From a virus, in the IMG/VR virus record IMGVR_UViG_3300034024_000041, positions 1 to 35,986 of that record: DNA of 35,986 bases; one strand, written 5' to 3'. Position 1 is the first letter of the stretch, and each line of letters opens with the position of its first letter. Below the pieces are notes generated by a model, which made no database searches, had not been told where the DNA came from, and was given only the letters and a program-made list of their open reading frames with translations. The position numbers were made by a program, and so were the translations under genes. This document shows positions 3,571 to 34,927 of this stretch, piece by piece.

Positions 3571-3600
3571 AAGCTATCAGGTACCTAATAGGCAGCGCAA
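3571..3600 (-). promoter_or_regulatory. Leftward early promoter with embedded operator
   Basis: On the minus strand a -35 TTGCGC (3595-3600) is followed after 18 bp by a -10 TAGCTT (3571-3576). The operator CTATCAGGTACCTAATAG (3574-3591) fills the spacer. It drives the operon 3530 to 134. Its -35 lies back to back with that of the rightward promoter, with only CC (3601-3602) between them, so both share one control region. Confidence 0.62.
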
Positions 3601-6798: not shown

Positions 6799-6828
6799 TA
6801 GACACAGCTAATAGGTACCTGATAGGTT
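6799..6828 (+). promoter_or_regulatory. Rightward promoter with embedded operator
   Basis: A -35 TAGACA (6799-6804), an 18-bp spacer and a -10 TAGGTT (6823-6828) precede the gene starting at 6861. The operator CTAATAGGTACCTGATAG is at 6808-6825. A second TTGACA at 6827-6832 has no matching -10 at the right distance, so the assignment rests on the architecture shared with the other operator promoters. Confidence 0.6.
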
Positions 6829-8555: not shown

Positions 8556-10228
8556 GCAAGATCGAGACGTTCGAGCTGCGCGACTATCAGCAGGAGACGA
8601 TCGACGATCTCTATCGGTTGTGGGGCATCGGCGAGCGTCGGATCGTCGGCGTTATGCCGACCGGGGGCGGCAAGACTGTGCTCGGCGTCAAGCCGGTCGC
8701 CGACTGCGTGCAGGCCGGCAAGCGTGTCTTGTGGCTCGCGCACCGTACCGAGCTGATCGAGGCGGCCGAGGAAAAGCTCAAGGGCGACTCGGCCGGCCTG
8801 CGGGTCGGCGTGCTGCAAGCGCGACGCCGTGAGTTCGACAGCGACGTGATCGTTGCGAGCGTGGCGACCGCGGTTCGAGCCGGCGCGCTCGGCCAGCTGG
8901 CGCAGCTCGGTATCGGGCTGATCGTCATCGACGAGTGCCATCACTCCGTTGCGCCGTCGTACATGACGATCATGCGGGCGCTCGGGGCGCTCGACGACGA
9001 CGGCCCGCTCGTGCTCGGGCTGACCGCGACGCTCGACCGCGGCGACGGGCTCGCGCTCTCCGAGCTCTGGCAGGCGGTCGCGAAACCGATCGAGATGCAG
9101 CGGCTCATCGACGAGGGGTGGCTACTGCGCCCCCGCGGCATCCGGGTCAAGCTCGACGATCTCAACCTGAGCGGGCTCAAGGCGACCGCATCGCAGGCGC
9201 AGACCGATCAGGCGTACAGCCGGGCGATGAGCGACTCGCTCGCTCCGGCCGCGATCGCCCGGGCGGTCGTCGAGCACTGCGCCGGCCGCAAGGGCGTGAT
9301 CTTCCTGCCGAGCGTCGAGCTGTCGAAAGAGCAGGCGCGCGTGCTCTGCGAACACGGCGTGTCGGCCGTGCACATGGATGCCGACACGCCGAAAGAGGTA
9401 CGGCGCGAGCTCATGCGGCGCGTCCGGGCGGGGCAGTACGACGCCGTTTGCAACGTCGGTCTCTTCACGGAAGGCACCGACGTGCCGATCTGGTCGTATG
9501 CCGGCCTCGCCCGCATGAGCAATTCGGGCGTGCTCGCGACGCAGATGATCGGCCGCCCCCTGCGGCCGTACCCGGGGCAGACCGAGGCGCTGATCTTGGA
9601 TTTCGTCGGGCTGACGGCGCGGTTCCGGCTGGTCACGCGCGTCAACCTTGACGGCGCCCCGCAGGTCGAGGACGTGCCCGATGACCTGCTCGATTACGTC
9701 GACGAGGACGAGGCCGACGAGCCGCACGAGCCCGAGCAGCACGGCGAGGCCGACCCGCTGCCGGAAGGCGTCGACGGCCCGCTCGCGTACGAGCTCGTCG
9801 ACCTTTTCTCGGCGAGTCACACGGCGTGGCAGCAGAGCCCGCGGGGCGTCTGGTTTCTGCCGACCGGCTCGGGGCGCGCCGTGTTCCTGGCGCCCGGGCA
9901 AGAGCCGGGCACGTACGACGTCCGGTGGAGCTCGGGCGAGCTCGTGCACGAGGACAGCGTGCCGCTCGACTCGGCGATGACGTGGGGCGAGCGCGCGGCC
10001 AAGAGCGAGGCGGCGCGGCCGGTCGAGCGCGCGGCCAGCTGGCGCAAGCGCAAGGCGACGCTCGCCGAGAAGTGGGCCGCGCTGTCGGCCGGCGCGGCGC
10101 CCGACGACTTCGGCCGCGAGGCCGGGGGCGTGACCGACGTGCTCGACCGGCAGTGGGCGAGTACGTCGATCGACGTACTGCCGTGCGTCGAGAAAGTCAC
10201 TCCGGCCGGCTACTGGACAACCTATTAG
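8552..10228 (+). CDS. SF2 DEAD/DEAH-box DNA helicase
   Basis: A 558-aa protein with the superfamily 2 motifs in order: LRDYQQETIDDLY near residue 9, Walker A MPTGGGKT near 34-42, DECH near 127-130 (IVIDECHHS), TAT near 158 (LGLTATL), a motif V segment with TEGTDVP, and motif VI QMIGRPLRP near 331. The arrangement matches the type III restriction/XPB-like helicases used by many actinophages. The C-terminal 200 residues are acidic, then basic, with no assigned fold. The GTG at 8552 overlaps the previous stop (GTGA). It probably acts in replication or recombination beside the primase/helicase. Its last codons contain the next operator promoter. Confidence 0.88.
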   Translation: MSKIETFELRDYQQETIDDLYRLWGIGERRIVGVMPTGGGKTVLGVKPVADCVQAGKRVLWLAHRTELIEAAEEKLKGDSAGLRVGVLQARRREFDSDVIVASVATAVRAGALGQLAQLGIGLIVIDECHHSVAPSYMTIMRALGALDDDGPLVLGLTATLDRGDGLALSELWQAVAKPIEMQRLIDEGWLLRPRGIRVKLDDLNLSGLKATASQAQTDQAYSRAMSDSLAPAAIARAVVEHCAGRKGVIFLPSVELSKEQARVLCEHGVSAVHMDADTPKEVRRELMRRVRAGQYDAVCNVGLFTEGTDVPIWSYAGLARMSNSGVLATQMIGRPLRPYPGQTEALILDFVGLTARFRLVTRVNLDGAPQVEDVPDDLLDYVDEDEADEPHEPEQHGEADPLPEGVDGPLAYELVDLFSASHTAWQQSPRGVWFLPTGSGRAVFLAPGQEPGTYDVRWSSGELVHEDSVPLDSAMTWGERAAKSEAARPVERAASWRKRKATLAEKWAALSAGAAPDDFGREAGGVTDVLDRQWASTSIDVLPCVEKVTPAGYWTTY

Positions 10229-10242
10229 GTACCTGATAGGTT
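10214..10242 (+). promoter_or_regulatory. Rightward promoter with embedded operator
   Basis: A -35 TGGACA (10214-10219), a 17-bp spacer and a -10 TAGGTT (10237-10242) overlap the end of the helicase gene. The operator CTATTAGGTACCTGATAG is at 10222-10239. The predicted start near 10249 gives a 35-nt leader with GGGAGAGC at 10272-10279 before ATG 10284. Confidence 0.63.
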
Positions 10243-12054: not shown

Positions 12055-12375
12055 TTGACGACGCAAAAAAGTTTCGTCGGGCTCGGCCGCGTGCGGTACG
12101 CGCTCGGCGACGGCGCCACCGAGCAGCAGGCGGTCGCCGTGTATCAGCTGCTCGACGGCGCCGGCCTGCTCGGGGGCAGCGACGAGATCGACCCGACGCG
12201 CCTCGTCGGGCTCGCTGAGTTCGCCGAGATCATGAACCGCACGCCGCAGGCGGTTCGCGGGTGGCGCGAGCTGCCCGAGCCGATCGTGCGGCTCAAGGCC
12301 GGGCCGATCTTCGACCGGGTGCACGTCGACCGGTTCAAGCTCGCGCACCCCGAGCTCTGCGGCGTGACCGCGTGA
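12055..12375 (+). CDS. MerR/excisionase-type helix-turn-helix protein
   Basis: A 106-aa protein. Residues 50-95 (LVGLAEFAEIMNRTPQAVRG, W, then a wing IFDRVHVDRF) match the winged helix-turn-helix of MerR/HTH_17/excisionase proteins. The start appears to be TTG at 12055, because no ATG or GTG lies upstream in frame and a GGGGGCGAGG purine run precedes it; this start is less certain. There is no integrase, so it is more likely a transcription factor or packaging-related protein than an excisionase. It overlaps the HNH gene by 4 bp. Confidence 0.7.
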   Translation: MTTQKSFVGLGRVRYALGDGATEQQAVAVYQLLDGAGLLGGSDEIDPTRLVGLAEFAEIMNRTPQAVRGWRELPEPIVRLKAGPIFDRVHVDRFKLAHPELCGVTA

Positions 12376-12770
12376 CGCACGTGCCCCTGCGGCCGTGTGG
12401 CGTCTGCTCGCAGCCGTGCCCGGATGGCGACTGCCCGCGGCACCCTAAGCGCGGCGGCTACCGACCCGGACGCAACGCGACCCGCAACGCGATCTATGGG
12501 CCGCTCTGGCGCGTGCTCGTCGCCCGGGTGCTCGCCGCGGCCGGCTACCGGTGCGCGTACTGCTCGATCGCGACCGCGACGACTGGCGATCACGTCGTGC
12601 CGCACAGCAAGGGGGGTCGCAGCGACGAGCGCAACACGGTCGCAGCCTGCCGCACGTGCAACACGAGCAAGGGGAACCGCACGCTGCGAGAGTGGGTGGC
12701 CTCGGGGCGCGCCCCGCTGCCTGCCTTGCAGCTGCTCGCTGCTCGCATCCGTTCTGAGCTGCCGGTATAG
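12372..12770 (+). CDS. HNH endonuclease
   Basis: A 132-aa protein with a complete HNH signature: CAYC at 61-64, the catalytic DHVVPHSKGG with Asp73-His74, Asn88 in ERNTVAAC, and the second knuckle CRTCN at 93-97 followed by KGNRTLREW. A Cys-rich N-terminus (CGVC...CPDGDC) may hold another zinc. In HK97-like phages an HNH protein assists the large terminase in cutting cohesive ends, and this gene precedes the terminase genes by about 1.7 kb, so a packaging role is likely. A homing nuclease is the alternative. The GTG start overlaps the previous TGA. Confidence 0.88.
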   Translation: MTHVPLRPCGVCSQPCPDGDCPRHPKRGGYRPGRNATRNAIYGPLWRVLVARVLAAAGYRCAYCSIATATTGDHVVPHSKGGRSDERNTVAACRTCNTSKGNRTLREWVASGRAPLPALQLLAARIRSELPV

Positions 12771-30282: not shown

Positions 30283-30996
30283 GTGCCGAACAGTCAGAAC
30301 GGGTGGCCGGTAGCGACCGCTGCGCAGCAGGACACGGCGCCGCTCATTCGCGACGTCAAGGTGCCTAACGGCGTGCTCAAGGGCGACGTCGCCGTGATCT
30401 TTCGGTGGCTCGTGCGCGAGTACGACCGGCGCGTCGAGCCGCTCAAGGCCGGATGGTGCTGGGGTTGGTTCGTCAAGTCGATCGAGGGCAGCTCGACGAT
30501 CTCGAATCACGCGAGCGGCACGGCCGTCGACCTCAACGCGCCGGCTAACCCGATGGGGCAGGGGACAACCAAGAAGAGCATGACCGCGGCGCAGATCGCC
30601 GAGTGCCACGAGCTCGAAAACGAGAGCGACAACGTGCTGCGGTGGGGCGGCGACTACGTTTCGCGGCAGGACCCGATGCACTGGGAGATCGTCGGCAGCC
30701 GCGCCGCGGTCGCCAAGTTCGCAGCCAAGATCAGGGGCGCGAACACGCCCCCGCGGAAGGTGGACACGATGCAGCTCACGATCAAGCTGCCCGTTCTCAA
30801 GCAGGGTGACGACGACGCCAAGCTCGACGGGTACAACATGATCACCCGTATGCAGCGGATCGTCGGCGCCGACGACGACGGTAAGTGGGGGCCCGCGACG
30901 ACGAAGGAAATCGCCGCGTGGTGCAACCTGCCGGTCGCCAAGTGCACGAGCCTGACCGAGGACGTTGCACGTAAGGTGTTCGGCCTCGGTCGGTAG
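30283..30996 (+). CDS. Endolysin: M15 peptidase with peptidoglycan-binding domain
   Basis: A 237-aa lysin. The M15 (VanY/Ply-type) zinc peptidase has His76 and Asp83 in NHASGTAVD and His133 in PMHWE, the three metal ligands, with Glu135 close by. It cleaves peptide bonds in peptidoglycan. Residues about 165-235 (ITRMQRIVGADDDGKWGPAT) form a C-terminal peptidoglycan-binding domain of the PGBD-1 type. There is no signal peptide, so the neighbouring holin candidates should release it. The GTG start follows a GAGGGGGG purine run. No amidase, lysozyme or mycolyl esterase accompanies it. Confidence 0.9.
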   Translation: MPNSQNGWPVATAAQQDTAPLIRDVKVPNGVLKGDVAVIFRWLVREYDRRVEPLKAGWCWGWFVKSIEGSSTISNHASGTAVDLNAPANPMGQGTTKKSMTAAQIAECHELENESDNVLRWGGDYVSRQDPMHWEIVGSRAAVAKFAAKIRGANTPPRKVDTMQLTIKLPVLKQGDDDAKLDGYNMITRMQRIVGADDDGKWGPATTKEIAAWCNLPVAKCTSLTEDVARKVFGLGR

Positions 30997-31106: not shown

Positions 31107-31331
31107 GTGCCTGATTGGGCGAAGATATTGACGCTCATGCTCGGGCTGCTCGGGTGGTCGGCGACCGTGATCGCGACGCTTTGGCAGGGGAAGATTCCCG
31201 ACCTCGGCACGTTAGGCATTCCGGCCGCCTTGATCCTGGCACTCGCGCCACCGATTAGGATCGGCCGCAGAGGGGCAGCAGACGAACCGACCGAGCCCGC
31301 GGGCGCACAGACGGAAGCGAGCGCACCATGA
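31107..31331 (+). CDS. Small two-pass membrane protein, holin candidate
   Basis: A 74-aa protein with GTG start after GAGAGGCGG. Two hydrophobic segments, residues about 5-25 (KILTLMLGLLGWSATVIATL) and 32-50 (LGTLGIPAALILALAPP), are followed by a charged tail, the plan of a class II holin. It heads a run of four small membrane-protein genes behind the endolysin, so a role in lysis is likely. Which of the four is the true holin is not decided by sequence. Confidence 0.62.
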   Translation: MPDWAKILTLMLGLLGWSATVIATLWQGKIPDLGTLGIPAALILALAPPIRIGRRGAADEPTEPAGAQTEASAP

Positions 31332-31513
31332 TCGAACTAGACCCGGGCGCGGTGGCAGGTGCCGCGATGATCGTCGCGAGCGTCGGCGTCGGGCTGCTCG
31401 GCCGGCGCGGTATCGCCGTGCTCGACGCCAAGCGCGACGCACGACTCGCAAGGCGAGAGGCGCAGCGGCCGGCGGCCGTCGTGCGGCAGCTGCCCGCGGG
31501 TGCTCGCCGATGA
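31328..31513 (+). CDS. Small single-pass membrane protein
   Basis: A 61-aa protein with one N-terminal hydrophobic segment (VAGAAMIVASVGVGLLG, residues about 8-24) followed by a very basic, Arg-rich tail. The charge pattern predicts the tail in the cytoplasm (N-out). It overlaps both neighbours by 4 bp. It may be a holin partner or regulator; no homology is recognised. Confidence 0.55.
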   Translation: MIELDPGAVAGAAMIVASVGVGLLGRRGIAVLDAKRDARLARREAQRPAAVVRQLPAGARR

Positions 31514-31869
31514 GCCCGTACAGCAAGCCGGCGCCGCGCGGTTTCCGGTGGGCCGACACGCCCGCGATGCGGGCCGTGCTCGTCGTGCTGATCGTCGCCT
31601 CGCTCGGCCTCTCGATCTACGCGAGCTCGCGGTACGTCGGGCTCGTCAACTGCTTGCAGGATCACGCCGCGGCCGACGCGACCCGCACAAAGAAGATCGC
31701 CGACGCGACCGACGTCGAGCGGGCAGCCGACCGCAACCTGCTCATGGGCCCCCGCGAGGGGCGCACTCCGGCCGAGCTGCGGCAGCGGGCGCTCGACGCC
31801 CGGGCTGAGACCGACCGTGTGCGCGCCGCCAACCCGGCGCCGTCCGGAGAGAGCGCGGCCTGCCGCTGA
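31510..31869 (+). CDS. Single-pass membrane protein, spanin-like topology
   Basis: A 119-aa protein. After a basic start, one transmembrane segment at residues about 18-40 (MRAVLVVLIVASLGLSIYAS) anchors an outside domain made of charged helices (AADATRTKKIADATDVERAA, ELRQRALDARAETDRV). N-in topology with an extracellular coiled-coil tail resembles an inner-membrane spanin and the single-TM proteins seen in actinophage lysis cassettes. One Cys follows the helix and another lies near the C-terminus. A lysis role is inferred from position and topology. Confidence 0.6.
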   Translation: MSPYSKPAPRGFRWADTPAMRAVLVVLIVASLGLSIYASSRYVGLVNCLQDHAAADATRTKKIADATDVERAADRNLLMGPREGRTPAELRQRALDARAETDRVRAANPAPSGESAACR

Positions 31870-31930: not shown

Positions 31931-32308
31931 ATGGAAACCAAGGGCAAGGCGATCATCGCCGCGCTGTACGCGGCGGCCGTCATCGCCGTACCGCTGTTCG
32001 AGGGCAACCACGTGCCGAGCCCGGCCGAGTGGGTGCAGATCACGATCGCGCTGCTGACCGCGGTCACGGTCTACGTGCTGCCCGTCATGGCCGGCGCCCC
32101 GTGGATCAAGACGACCGTCGGCGCGCTGCTCGCAGCCGCGCAGGTGCTCGTCACCGTGATCAACGATGGCGTCAACGGCAACGACGTGCTCATGATCGTA
32201 TTCGCAGTGGCCGCGGCGATCGGCATCACGCTCGCGCCGGCCGACTCGACCGCTGTGCGCGGTGGCACGGCCGTCGGGTGGGGCAGCGACAAGCAGCTGA
32301 CCGCGTGA
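31931..32308 (+). CDS. Putative holin, multi-pass membrane protein
   Basis: A 125-aa protein with three or four hydrophobic segments: AIIAALYAAAVIAVPLF (about 6-22), ITIALLTAVTVYVLPVMAG (about 38-56), TTVGALLAAAQVLVTVI (about 61-77) and VLMIVFAVAAAIGITLA (about 86-103). Size, topology and a start after AAGGGGACTCG fit the multi-TM holins of actinophage lysis cassettes. It would permeabilise the membrane to let the M15 endolysin reach the wall. It is separated from the other membrane genes by the box-hairpin element. The next gene begins on its stop. Confidence 0.72.
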   Translation: METKGKAIIAALYAAAVIAVPLFEGNHVPSPAEWVQITIALLTAVTVYVLPVMAGAPWIKTTVGALLAAAQVLVTVINDGVNGNDVLMIVFAVAAAIGITLAPADSTAVRGGTAVGWGSDKQLTA

Positions 32309-32622
32309 TGCAGGCGCAGGGACCGAGCGAGACGATCACGCCCCGGCCGGCGCGTGGCGACGAGCAGCTCGTCGAGGCGACCGAGACCGGGCTGACCGGC
32401 CTCGCGTTGCGGCACCCGAGCGTGCGTCACTTCGGCCCGCTGTTCGCGTACGGGCAGCTGCCCGTGCACCTGCGGACGGTCAGCAAGTCGGTCGCCGAGC
32501 TGGCCGCGGTGGCGTGCAACCTGCTCGCCGACGGGCCCGAGCTCGCGGCCGGGCTGCGCAAGCTACGCGAGGCGAAAGACTGCCTCGTGACGCAGGCCGT
32601 GATCGACTCGCATACGGAGTAA
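32308..32622 (+). CDS. Acb2/Tad1-like cyclic-nucleotide sponge candidate
   Basis: A 104-aa protein with ATG sharing a base with the holin's TGA. Residues 32-98 follow the pattern of the Acb2/Tad1 hairpin family (DUF7681 type): ALRHPSVRHFGPLFAYGQLP, then a helix with VSKSVAELAAVACNLLADG, then GPELAAGLRKLREAKDCLV. Family members form small helical oligomers that sequester cyclic di- or trinucleotides and so block CBASS or Thoeris immunity. Actinophages often carry relatives next to lysis genes, mostly annotated as hypothetical. The family call rests on recalled pattern similarity; activity is inferred. Confidence 0.6.
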   Translation: MQAQGPSETITPRPARGDEQLVEATETGLTGLALRHPSVRHFGPLFAYGQLPVHLRTVSKSVAELAAVACNLLADGPELAAGLRKLREAKDCLVTQAVIDSHTE

Positions 32623-32921: not shown

Positions 32922-32950
32922 AGCCTAATAGGTACCTAATAGGTTGTCAA
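32922..32950 (-). promoter_or_regulatory. Leftward promoter with embedded operator
   Basis: On the minus strand a consensus -35 TTGACA (32945-32950), a 17-bp spacer and a -10 TAGGCT (32922-32927) precede the 64-aa gene. The fully symmetrical operator CTAATAGGTACCTAATAG is at 32925-32942. This is the clearest member of the set and defines how the operator overlaps the promoter. Confidence 0.7.
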
Positions 32951-33788: not shown

Positions 33789-34280
33789 TCAGCTCGTGGC
33801 GAACGGGTTGACCCGACCGGCCGGCGCGGCGGGCAGCGGCTCGGCCGCGGGTGCGACCGGCTCGGCCGGCGCGGCGACCTGCTCGACAGGGGCGGGCACG
33901 GGCGCGGCCGGCGCTTGCGCGGCCTGCTCGGGCACGGCCGCGCCTTCCGTCGTCTCTCCCACGGCCGCCGCGGTCGGTTCGGCAGCGGCCGGCTCAGCCG
34001 GCGCGGCGGCCGTCTTGCGCGGTCGCCCGCGGCCTCGCTTCGGCTCGCCGTCGGCCGGCGCCGCGGTGGCCGCGGCCGGATCGGCGAGCTCGGCCTGCTG
34101 CTCGCGCCCGGCCGAGCTGTCGATGACGCTCGCGCTCTGCGCGCCGAGCTCGGCCGCCACGTGCGGCAGCATCGCGACGACCGTCGCCCGGCTGCCGGTC
34201 ACGACCGCGAGATCAGTGCGCTCGCCGTCGACGTCGATCTCGACGAGCGCGAGCTCGTACCGCTTGCTGCTGTTCGTCAT
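33789..34280 (-). CDS. AT-hook protein from internal in-frame start
   Basis: ATG 34280 directly follows GGGGAGAGC, the start-associated octamer used elsewhere, and opens a 163-aa product in the same frame as RusA. Residues 1-60 look like a small alpha/beta domain (RYELALVEIDVDGERTDLAV). KRGRGRPRKT at 81-90 is an AT-hook for minor-groove binding. The rest is a disordered Pro/Ala/Glu tail ending in VNPFATS, similar to the VNPFSL end of the SSB-like protein. It may be made both alone and as a RusA fusion. If the missing stop is a sequencing error, this is simply the next gene. Confidence 0.65.
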   Translation of the reverse strand: MTNSSKRYELALVEIDVDGERTDLAVVTGSRATVVAMLPHVAAELGAQSASVIDSSAGREQQAELADPAAATAAPADGEPKRGRGRPRKTAAAPAEPAAAEPTAAAVGETTEGAAVPEQAAQAPAAPVPAPVEQVAAPAEPVAPAAEPLPAAPAGRVNPFATS

Positions 34281-34739
34281 GCTCTCCCCTTGCGTGATGA
34301 CCGGCCGCGGCCGGTCGCTGATGATGATGATCGCCCCGGGCTGCTCGTCGTCCCACGGGCGCTCTTTCGCGATCTCGTGCAGGCGCTTGATCTGCGCGTC
34401 GTCGGCGAACACGTGCGCGTCGCCGAGCCCGTCGATCGTGGCACGCAGCAGCTTGTCGACGTCCGGCCGGCCGATCGGCTCGTCGGTTCCGGCCGCCCGA
34501 CACTGCTCGTCGCCGACGATCAGCGTGAGCTCGTGCACGTAGACGGGCACGCCGACCGGGTACGGCACGCTGCGGGGCGGCAGGCCGGCGTCGCGCATCG
34601 CCGCGTATGCCGCGATCTCGACCTGCCGGCGCCACGCGGCGAGGTAGTTCGAGCTGTGCGTGATCCGGCCGTTCGCGCCGATCTCGTGCGACCCCTGCGG
34701 CGCCGGCCGGCCGAGCACTCGCAGCGCGAGCGTCGTCAC
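33789..34739 (-). CDS. rusA: RusA-type Holliday junction resolvase with AT-hook C-terminal extension
   Basis: A 316-aa frame from GTG 34739 (overlapping the previous TGA). Residues 1-150 are RusA-like: APQGSHEI near 13, then the catalytic acidic residues in GRPDVDKLLRATIDGL (Asp93, Asp95) and FADDAQI (Asp114), matching Asp70, Asp72 and Asp91 of E. coli RusA. RusA cuts four-way junctions. The frame has no stop at the usual RusA end and continues into a Pro/Ala-rich region with an AT-hook (KRGRGRPRKT) and a final VNPFATS. Codon CAA at 34290-34292 is one C-to-T change from TAA. The downstream part also has its own strong start site. It works with the SSB-like protein and exonuclease. Confidence 0.8.
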   Translation of the reverse strand: MTTLALRVLGRPAPQGSHEIGANGRITHSSNYLAAWRRQVEIAAYAAMRDAGLPPRSVPYPVGVPVYVHELTLIVGDEQCRAAGTDEPIGRPDVDKLLRATIDGLGDAHVFADDAQIKRLHEIAKERPWDDEQPGAIIIISDRPRPVITQGESMTNSSKRYELALVEIDVDGERTDLAVVTGSRATVVAMLPHVAAELGAQSASVIDSSAGREQQAELADPAAATAAPADGEPKRGRGRPRKTAAAPAEPAAAEPTAAAVGETTEGAAVPEQAAQAPAAPVPAPVEQVAAPAEPVAPAAEPLPAAPAGRVNPFATS

Positions 34740-34927
34740 GACCGGGCCCGCTGCGCCGCGCGGCGGCCGGCGCGCATCGCCGCGTAGTGCCACCGATTGT
34801 CGAACGGGCTGCGGAAGCTGCTGACCCGCATCCGCCACCCGTGGTCGTCGACGATCGCGAGCGCCTCGTCGAGCGCTTCCTGCCAGCTGAGCAGGCGCGG
34901 CGCGTCGCCGTGCGTACTGCCTTGCAT
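34736..34927 (-). CDS. 63-aa hypothetical protein
   Basis: A short protein starting MQGSTHGDAP at ATG 34927, preceded by AGGGGGC. The N-terminal helix SWQEALDEALAIVDDHGWRM and a beta-type RVSSFRSPFDNRWHYAAM lead to an Arg-rich tail. A longer start at 34984 would read through a 10-bp hairpin and is less likely. It lies between the SSB-like gene and RusA and overlaps RusA by 4 bp, so it is probably a small recombination accessory. No family is recognised. Confidence 0.6.
   Translation of the reverse strand: MQGSTHGDAPRLLSWQEALDEALAIVDDHGWRMRVSSFRSPFDNRWHYAAMRAGRRAAQRARS

What the first reader, a model, noticed from the sequence alone, without database searches (positions are those of the whole stretch)
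32308..32622. Possible anti-CBASS/anti-Thoeris cyclic nucleotide sponge beside the holin
The 104-aa product has the two-helix core and the GLRKLREAKDC end typical of the Acb2/Tad1 hairpin family. If correct, the phage carries a counter-defence gene coupled to the lysis cassette, starting on the holin stop codon.
Basis: partly seen in the sequence, partly recalled or inferred. Interest (0 to 1): 0.7.

Follow-up and report, generated by a model that had tools for sequence, protein, structure and literature searches.

The report
Phage immune-signal sponge beside lysis genes
A small phage protein encoded right behind a holin-like gene belongs to a very common but nameless phage family that looks like a distant sister of Acb2/Tad1, proteins that soak up the alarm molecules bacteria use against phages; if so, a great many phages carry an unrecognised counter-defence gene.

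Summary
The ORF is real: 32308-32622, 104 aa, coding-like GC by codon position, starting one base inside the stop of a holin-like gene. Its C-terminal 60-70 residues belong to a large conserved family (PHROG 5120/1761, no function) with the motif FxYxHLPxHLxxVS...LPDGPExxxGLRKLLEAKDCFVR, found in 294 phage records and over 500 IMG/VR stretches. The family has no Pfam match and fails the Acb2_Tad1_hairpin model (PF24729), so it is not a member as defined. Remote-homology evidence nevertheless links the two. Profile-profile scores far exceed shuffled controls; in an HMM search of 26,198 ORFs, all 68 non-family hits at E<=1 were Acb2/Tad1-type. The predicted fold (short helix plus two long helices, pLDDT 96) is that of Acb2, and Y48 aligns with the ligand-stacking Y8 of T4 Acb2. 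Context agrees: in 49 phage records not chosen for it, the only Tad2 genes (2) and RyR gene (1) lie directly beside this gene, and one N-terminal domain is joined in different phages to this domain, to an Acb2/Tad1 hairpin and to Tad2. Best reading: a divergent sister clade of nucleotide-signal sponges. Ligand binding is untested; three recent sponge papers could not be read.

The parts
30283..30996 (+). endolysin (peptidase M15_4), start of the lysis cassette
   Evidence: PF13539 E=5.3e-11; PHROG 1512 endolysin E=9e-24
31107..31331 (+). 74-aa hydrophobic small protein, holin-like by its hydrophobic segments only
   Evidence: sequence; no family match
31328..31513 (+). 61-aa single-hydrophobic-segment protein, overlaps its neighbours
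   Evidence: sequence; no family match
31510..31869 (+). 119-aa protein with one N-terminal hydrophobic segment and a charged helical part; spanin-like by shape only
   Evidence: sequence; no confident family match
31931..32308 (+).
   Evidence: sequence; PF23809 Phage_holin_9 only E=0.62, below cut-off
32308..32622 (+). sponge-like protein P0001, 104 aa; ATG overlaps the upstream stop (TGATG)
   Evidence: codon-position GC; PHROG 5120 and 1761
32308..32406 (+). N-terminal extension, residues 1-33, not shared with the homologues inspected
   Evidence: an alternative TTG start lies at 32407
32416..32619 (+). conserved domain, residues 37-104, of PHROG 5120/1761
   Evidence: A3 alignment; AlphaFold2 pLDDT 96.4
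32422..32445 (+). short N-terminal helix, residues 39-46
   Evidence: AlphaFold2
32449..32451 (+). Y48, aromatic in almost 90% of the family; aligns with cyclic-dinucleotide-stacking Y8 of T4 Acb2
   Evidence: Y8 from PMC12657218
32464..32523 (+). long helix 1 of the hairpin, residues 53-72
   Evidence: AlphaFold2
32536..32616 (+). long helix 2 of the hairpin, residues 77-103, with E78, G82-L-R84-K85-L, E88-A-K90-D91-C
   Evidence: AlphaFold2; conservation

Best explanation
P0001 is a small counter-defence protein that works as a nucleotide-signal sponge. Shown or strongly indicated: its C-terminal domain folds as a short helix plus a long antiparallel helical hairpin and is a remote homologue of the Acb2/Tad1 hairpin, in a large sister family (PHROG 5120/1761) that existing models miss. 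Inferred: by analogy with Acb2, several copies assemble so that the N-terminal aromatic (Y48) and conserved charged residues of helix 2 (R84, K85, E88, K90, D91) line pockets that hold, without cutting, a cyclic-nucleotide or cyclic-ADP-ribose alarm molecule of CBASS, Thoeris or a related system, so the host effector is not switched on. Its start inside the upstream stop suggests translational coupling and expression with the lysis genes. Which signal it binds is unknown.
For: Homology: hhalign of 66 family members against 10 hairpins (six of them scanned and all Pfam-confirmed) gives prob 91.2, score 36.4, 35 columns without gaps. 200 column-shuffled controls reach at most 17.2 and an unrelated phage domain, crAss001_48, gives 14.1. 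Two groups that Pfam does place in PF24729 score 33.0 against each other. Larger sets give prob 92-94. Of 26,198 ORFs, all 68 non-family hits of the family HMM at E<=1 are Acb2/Tad1-type; the reverse is 38 of 41. Fold: helices 3-10, 17-36, 41-67 against 4-11, 19-42, 47-70 for a known hairpin; this equals the Acb2 protomer as described in PMC12043709. Foldseek lists nine named Acb2/Tad1 proteins in its top 50, best prob 0.89, and the known hairpin shares several of these hits. Pocket: Y48 aligns with the F/Y column holding T4 Acb2 Y8 (PMC12657218). Context: in 50 phage records, one of them (L053) added because it had RyR, the only Tad2 genes (2) and RyR genes (2) lie directly beside the family gene (coordinates); also in Yersinia similis. 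Domain swaps: one N-terminal domain is joined to this domain (L012), to an Acb2/Tad1 hairpin (L184) and to Tad2 (L073).
Against: No hit to PF24729 by HMMER for P0001 or the 15 relatives tested. P0001 on its own gives no profile similarity. Against the most diverse hairpins alone (T4 Vs.4 and three others) the family scores only 8.5. Foldseek matches to Acb2/Tad1 are not significant (E 0.4 or worse) and no solved Acb2/Tad1 structure appears among the PDB rows shown. Helical hairpins are simple and can converge. The helix-2 signature differs (GLRKLLEAKDCFVR against A.TKLEEAMFWANA). The window copy departs at three positions kept by over 90% of the family (Q50 for H, R87 for L, T95 for R). No binding, oligomer or infection data exist here.
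Confidence: 0.66

Rival explanations
1. A lysis-cassette accessory, for example a soluble holin regulator or lysis-timing factor, whose placement next to the holin is functional.
For: It overlaps the holin-like gene in the window. Among 147 neighbouring ORFs of family members, lysis families recur (Amidase_2 4, Rz 4, r1t holin 3). E. coli MS 115-1 carries a 62-aa member right after holin-lysozyme-Rz. Gustav, NS-I and Vibrio phage 1.183 also have it near lysin and holin.
Against: Many members lie elsewhere: beside the major capsid gene (Perlina), in early or accessory regions (BigNuz, Skog, Fortunato, ZZ1), or beside Tad2/RyR. Confirmed Acb2/Tad1 hairpins sit in lysis cassettes too. It has no membrane segment.
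Confidence: 0.13
2. A sponge or ligand-binding protein that reached the same hairpin shape independently, related to Acb2/Tad1 only by convergence; the function may still be sequestration.
For: No direct HMM match, different helix-2 motif, weak similarity to T4-type Acb2, insignificant Foldseek E-values.
Against: The gapless in-register profile alignment far exceeds shuffled and unrelated controls, and the 68-of-68 ORF result is hard to get from convergence.
Confidence: 0.1
3. A small adaptor or structural protein that binds a protein partner rather than a nucleotide, carried as an accessory gene.
For: Very high conservation of charged helix-2 residues could be a protein interface; some members are fused to other domains such as crAss001_48.
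Against: Known sponges share its partner domain and its neighbours. Presence in very different phage types and hosts argues against a fixed structural partner.
Confidence: 0.1

Closest known systems
Acb2 / Tad1 hairpin family (PF24729, Acb2_Tad1_hairpin; T4 Vs.4; PDB Acb2 homolog 43, 9ptq)
   Same: Short N-terminal helix plus two long antiparallel helices, matching helix spacing, LPxG.E(K).. turn and KL.EA core, aromatic at the Y8 position, small phage protein, sometimes in lysis cassettes
   Different: Below detection by the Pfam model; helix 2 reads GLRKLLEAKDCFVR instead of A.TKLEEAMFWANA; ligand and oligomer unknown
PHROG 5120 and PHROG 1761
   Same: Direct members by HMM (E 3.6e-25 and 4.5e-16); same motif
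   Different: These families carry no function; the window copy has an N-terminal extension and three departures from the consensus
Tad2 (PF11195)
   Same: Adjacent gene in several relatives, and the L073 Tad2 gene carries the same N-terminal partner domain
   Different: No similarity to this domain; a different fold according to PMC12043709
crAss001_48 domain (PF21825)
   Same: Fused to this domain in L073, L081 and L085
   Different: No profile similarity; function unknown

Membership tests
Acb2/Tad1 hairpin, PF24729 (DUF7681) | Match to the curated profile above its gathering score (27 bits) | tested here: not met
   No match at E<=1 for P0001, E<=10 in the window or for 15 relatives
Acb2/Tad1 hairpin, PF24729 (DUF7681) | Remote sequence homology to confirmed members (profile-profile) | tested here: met
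   prob 91-94, score 36-40 against at most 17.2 in 200 shuffles; ORF-search reciprocity. Not met for the single sequence P0001
[quoted passage not shown]
   AlphaFold2 of the family and of known hairpins; description in PMC12043709
Acb2/Tad1 hairpin, PF24729 (DUF7681) | Helix-2 signature REK..A.TKLEEA..WANAAIA | tested here: not met
   Family reads PE...AGLRKLLEAKDCFVR; only the E, KL and EA positions are kept
Acb2/Tad1 hairpin, PF24729 (DUF7681) | Aromatic residue at the position of T4 Acb2 Y8, needed for cyclic-dinucleotide binding | tested here: met
   Y48; column F/Y in 91 of 94 hairpins; Y, F or W in 87% of the family
Acb2/Tad1 hairpin, PF24729 (DUF7681) | Hexamer that binds cyclic nucleotides or gcADPR | not testable with these tools
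   Only single-chain folding is offered; no binding data
PHROG 5120 / PHROG 1761 | HMM match over the conserved C-terminal domain | tested here: met
   E=3.6e-25 and 4.5e-16; all 16 aligned members match both
Phage lysis proteins (holin, spanin, endolysin) | Membrane segment or lysis-family profile | tested here: not met
   No lysis-family match for P0001; no hydrophobic segment in the sequence

The most novel reading that the evidence does not exclude
PHROG 5120/1761 is a separate, very widespread class of phage sponge that arose from the Acb2/Tad1 hairpin but binds a different alarm molecule, perhaps a cyclic ADP-ribose signal given its pairing with Tad2 and RyR genes, and uses its invariant R-K-L-x-E-A-K-D surface as a new ligand site.
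Probability: 0.35. Interest if true: 0.78.

Novelty: new variant of a known kind. Interest (0 to 1): 0.62.

Why it matters
If right, a family carried by hundreds of sequenced phages of Gram-positive and Gram-negative hosts, including E. coli prophages, and annotated 'hypothetical protein' almost everywhere I looked, becomes a testable class of counter-defence proteins. It would help explain how phages, among them actinobacteriophages, escape CBASS and Thoeris, and the sequence motif makes the family easy to find. A 62-aa E. coli prophage member gives a simple laboratory test.

Tried and rejected
Direct Pfam, NCBIfam and PDB sequence searches with P0001 gave nothing relevant, and PDB searches with family profiles gave only chance hits. 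The single-protein scan of IMG/VR found no relatives; the alignment did. PF24729 was not found elsewhere in the window or in 15 phages carrying the family, and none of 30 IMG/VR records had a match above its cut-off. Conservation of RKL.EAKD in the scanned loci is partly built in by the search pattern; the unbiased evidence is the tblastn set. Foldseek against PDB gave no significant match. Literature searches for the family, DUF7681, crAss001_48, and Sequestin with Lockin found nothing; three relevant recent sponge papers were not held, so prior description cannot be excluded. The 1,211 E. coli genomes are not a count of the gene, as many matches cover only flanking sequence.

Full report
The observation. 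The ORF 32308-32622 (+) encodes the stated 104-aa protein. Its ATG uses the last base of the TGA that ends the 31931-32308 ORF (sequence TGATG). GC by codon position is 75/49/94%, as for the neighbouring endolysin and membrane-protein genes, and the first 34 codons share that pattern, so the ATG start is plausible; a TTG at 32407 would give the length of many homologues. Upstream lie an M15-type endolysin and several small hydrophobic proteins, so this is a lysis cassette, although the 125-aa 'holin' is called from its hydrophobic segments only. The window is an IMG/VR virus record; its terminase is only distantly related to known phages, mostly of actinobacteria.

What it is. The last 60-70 residues match PHROG 5120 (E=3.6e-25) and PHROG 1761 (E=4.5e-16), both without function. 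tblastn finds relatives in 294 phage records of Gordonia, Mycobacterium, Rhodococcus, Nocardia, Vibrio, Erwinia, Acinetobacter and others. Consensus: FxYxHLPxHLQxVSxPxxxLAxxMxxxLPDGPExxxGLRKLLEAKDCFVRxAL. In the unbiased tblastn set E78, G82, R84, K85, L86, E88, A89, K90, D91 and V94 are invariant. The window copy differs at three strongly kept positions: Q50, R87 and T95.

Relation to Acb2/Tad1. The direct test fails: no PF24729 match for P0001 or for 15 relatives. I therefore gathered known hairpins from actinobacterial, Paenibacillus and other phages (the six scanned give PF24729 E=1.6e-17 to 1.8e-27) and compared profiles. Family against hairpins: probability 91.2, score 36.4, 35 columns with no gap, VSKP..LA.....LPDGPE...GLRKLLEA against VR....LA.....LPPGREK.LA.TKLEEA. 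Shuffling hairpin columns 200 times gave at most 17.2 and the unrelated crAss001_48 domain 14.1. Two groups both inside PF24729 score 33.0 against each other, so the family is about as close to one hairpin group as known groups are to each other, though it does not match the T4-type group alone (8.5). Larger hairpin sets give probabilities 92-94. In 26,198 ORFs from 274 loci, every one of the 68 non-family hits of the family HMM at E<=1 is an Acb2/Tad1-type ORF, and 38 of 41 in reverse. These hits are not all independent, since many hairpins resemble each other.

Fold and pocket. AlphaFold2 with 66 relatives gives pLDDT 96.4 and helices at model residues 3-10, 17-36 and 41-67. A known hairpin gives 4-11, 19-42 and 47-70. 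[quoted passage not shown] Foldseek against viral models ranks the family itself first, then nine named Acb2/Tad1 proteins within the top 50, with E-values of 0.4 or worse. As a yardstick, the known hairpin hits its own kind at E=4e-4 to 3 and shares targets such as G1EDP4, B2BTN4, A0A8S5Q4N3 and A0A411AWH0 with the family model. T4 Acb2 Y8, needed for cyclic-dinucleotide binding (PMC12657218), falls in an F/Y column of the hairpins that aligns with Y48 here.

Context. An N-terminal domain (PHROG 872-like) is joined to this domain in Vibrio phage 1.183 (L012) and, with 58% identity over 71 residues, in an Acinetobacter protein (L184) whose C-terminal end is an Acb2/Tad1-type hairpin (over the cut-off in the genome search; 26 of the required 27 bits as a protein). 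A similar domain precedes Tad2 (PF11195, E=5.7e-23) in L073. That Tad2 gene lies directly upstream of a family gene that is itself fused to crAss001_48. In 50 phage records carrying the family there are two Tad2 genes, and in a set of 50 that includes L053, two RyR genes; all four sit directly beside the family gene. L053 was added because its RyR gene had been seen, so the fair count is three of three, for which a rough chance estimate is 5e-5. Phage RyR proteins were recently shown to degrade or sequester Thoeris signals (PMC13232231). A Tad2 also follows the family gene in Yersinia similis and precedes a hairpin gene in L259/L260. Lysis genes are frequent neighbours too, but confirmed hairpins also sit in lysis cassettes (lysin B-hairpin-holin in prophi91-3, lysin A-hairpin-membrane protein in Jace), so that position does not argue against a sponge.

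Judgement. Shown: a real gene, a conserved family, a helical-hairpin prediction of high confidence, statistical similarity to Acb2/Tad1 hairpins, and association with known signal-disabling genes. Inferred: oligomer, pocket, signal binding, timing of expression. By the rules of membership it is not PF24729; it most likely works like it, as a divergent sister clade. Whether recent sponge papers already name this family could not be checked.

Noticed in passing
window 3574-3592, 6808-6826, 10222-10240, 32925-32943: A near-palindromic intergenic element, CTA(T/A)(T/C)AGGTACCT(A/G)ATAGG, occurs four times (7 strand matches, none expected by chance); a candidate repressor operator or stoperator.
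   Followed up: partly
L012:2240-2470, L184:1030-1290, L073:5446-5680: An uncharacterised phage domain (PHROG 872-like, GEYNEYRGW...YISWSPK) is joined to three different sponge-type domains, so it may itself take part in counter-defence.
   Followed up: partly
L073, L081, L085 (C-terminal part of the family ORF): PF21825 (crAss001_48), a domain of unknown function, is fused to the sponge-like domain and may be another counter-defence domain.
   Followed up: no
L053:569-916 and L045:6546-6692: RyR-domain genes lie directly downstream of the family gene, in L053 starting inside its stop codon: possible two-gene anti-Thoeris modules.
   Followed up: partly
L276:3045-3233 (E. coli MS 115-1, WP_000097967.1): A 62-aa E. 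coli prophage member lies right after holin-lysozyme-Rz and is annotated hypothetical.
   Followed up: partly
window 12261-12770 and 33789-34838 (-): By eye, an HNH-endonuclease-like ORF and a RusA-like resolvase with a long low-complexity C-terminal tail.
   Followed up: no
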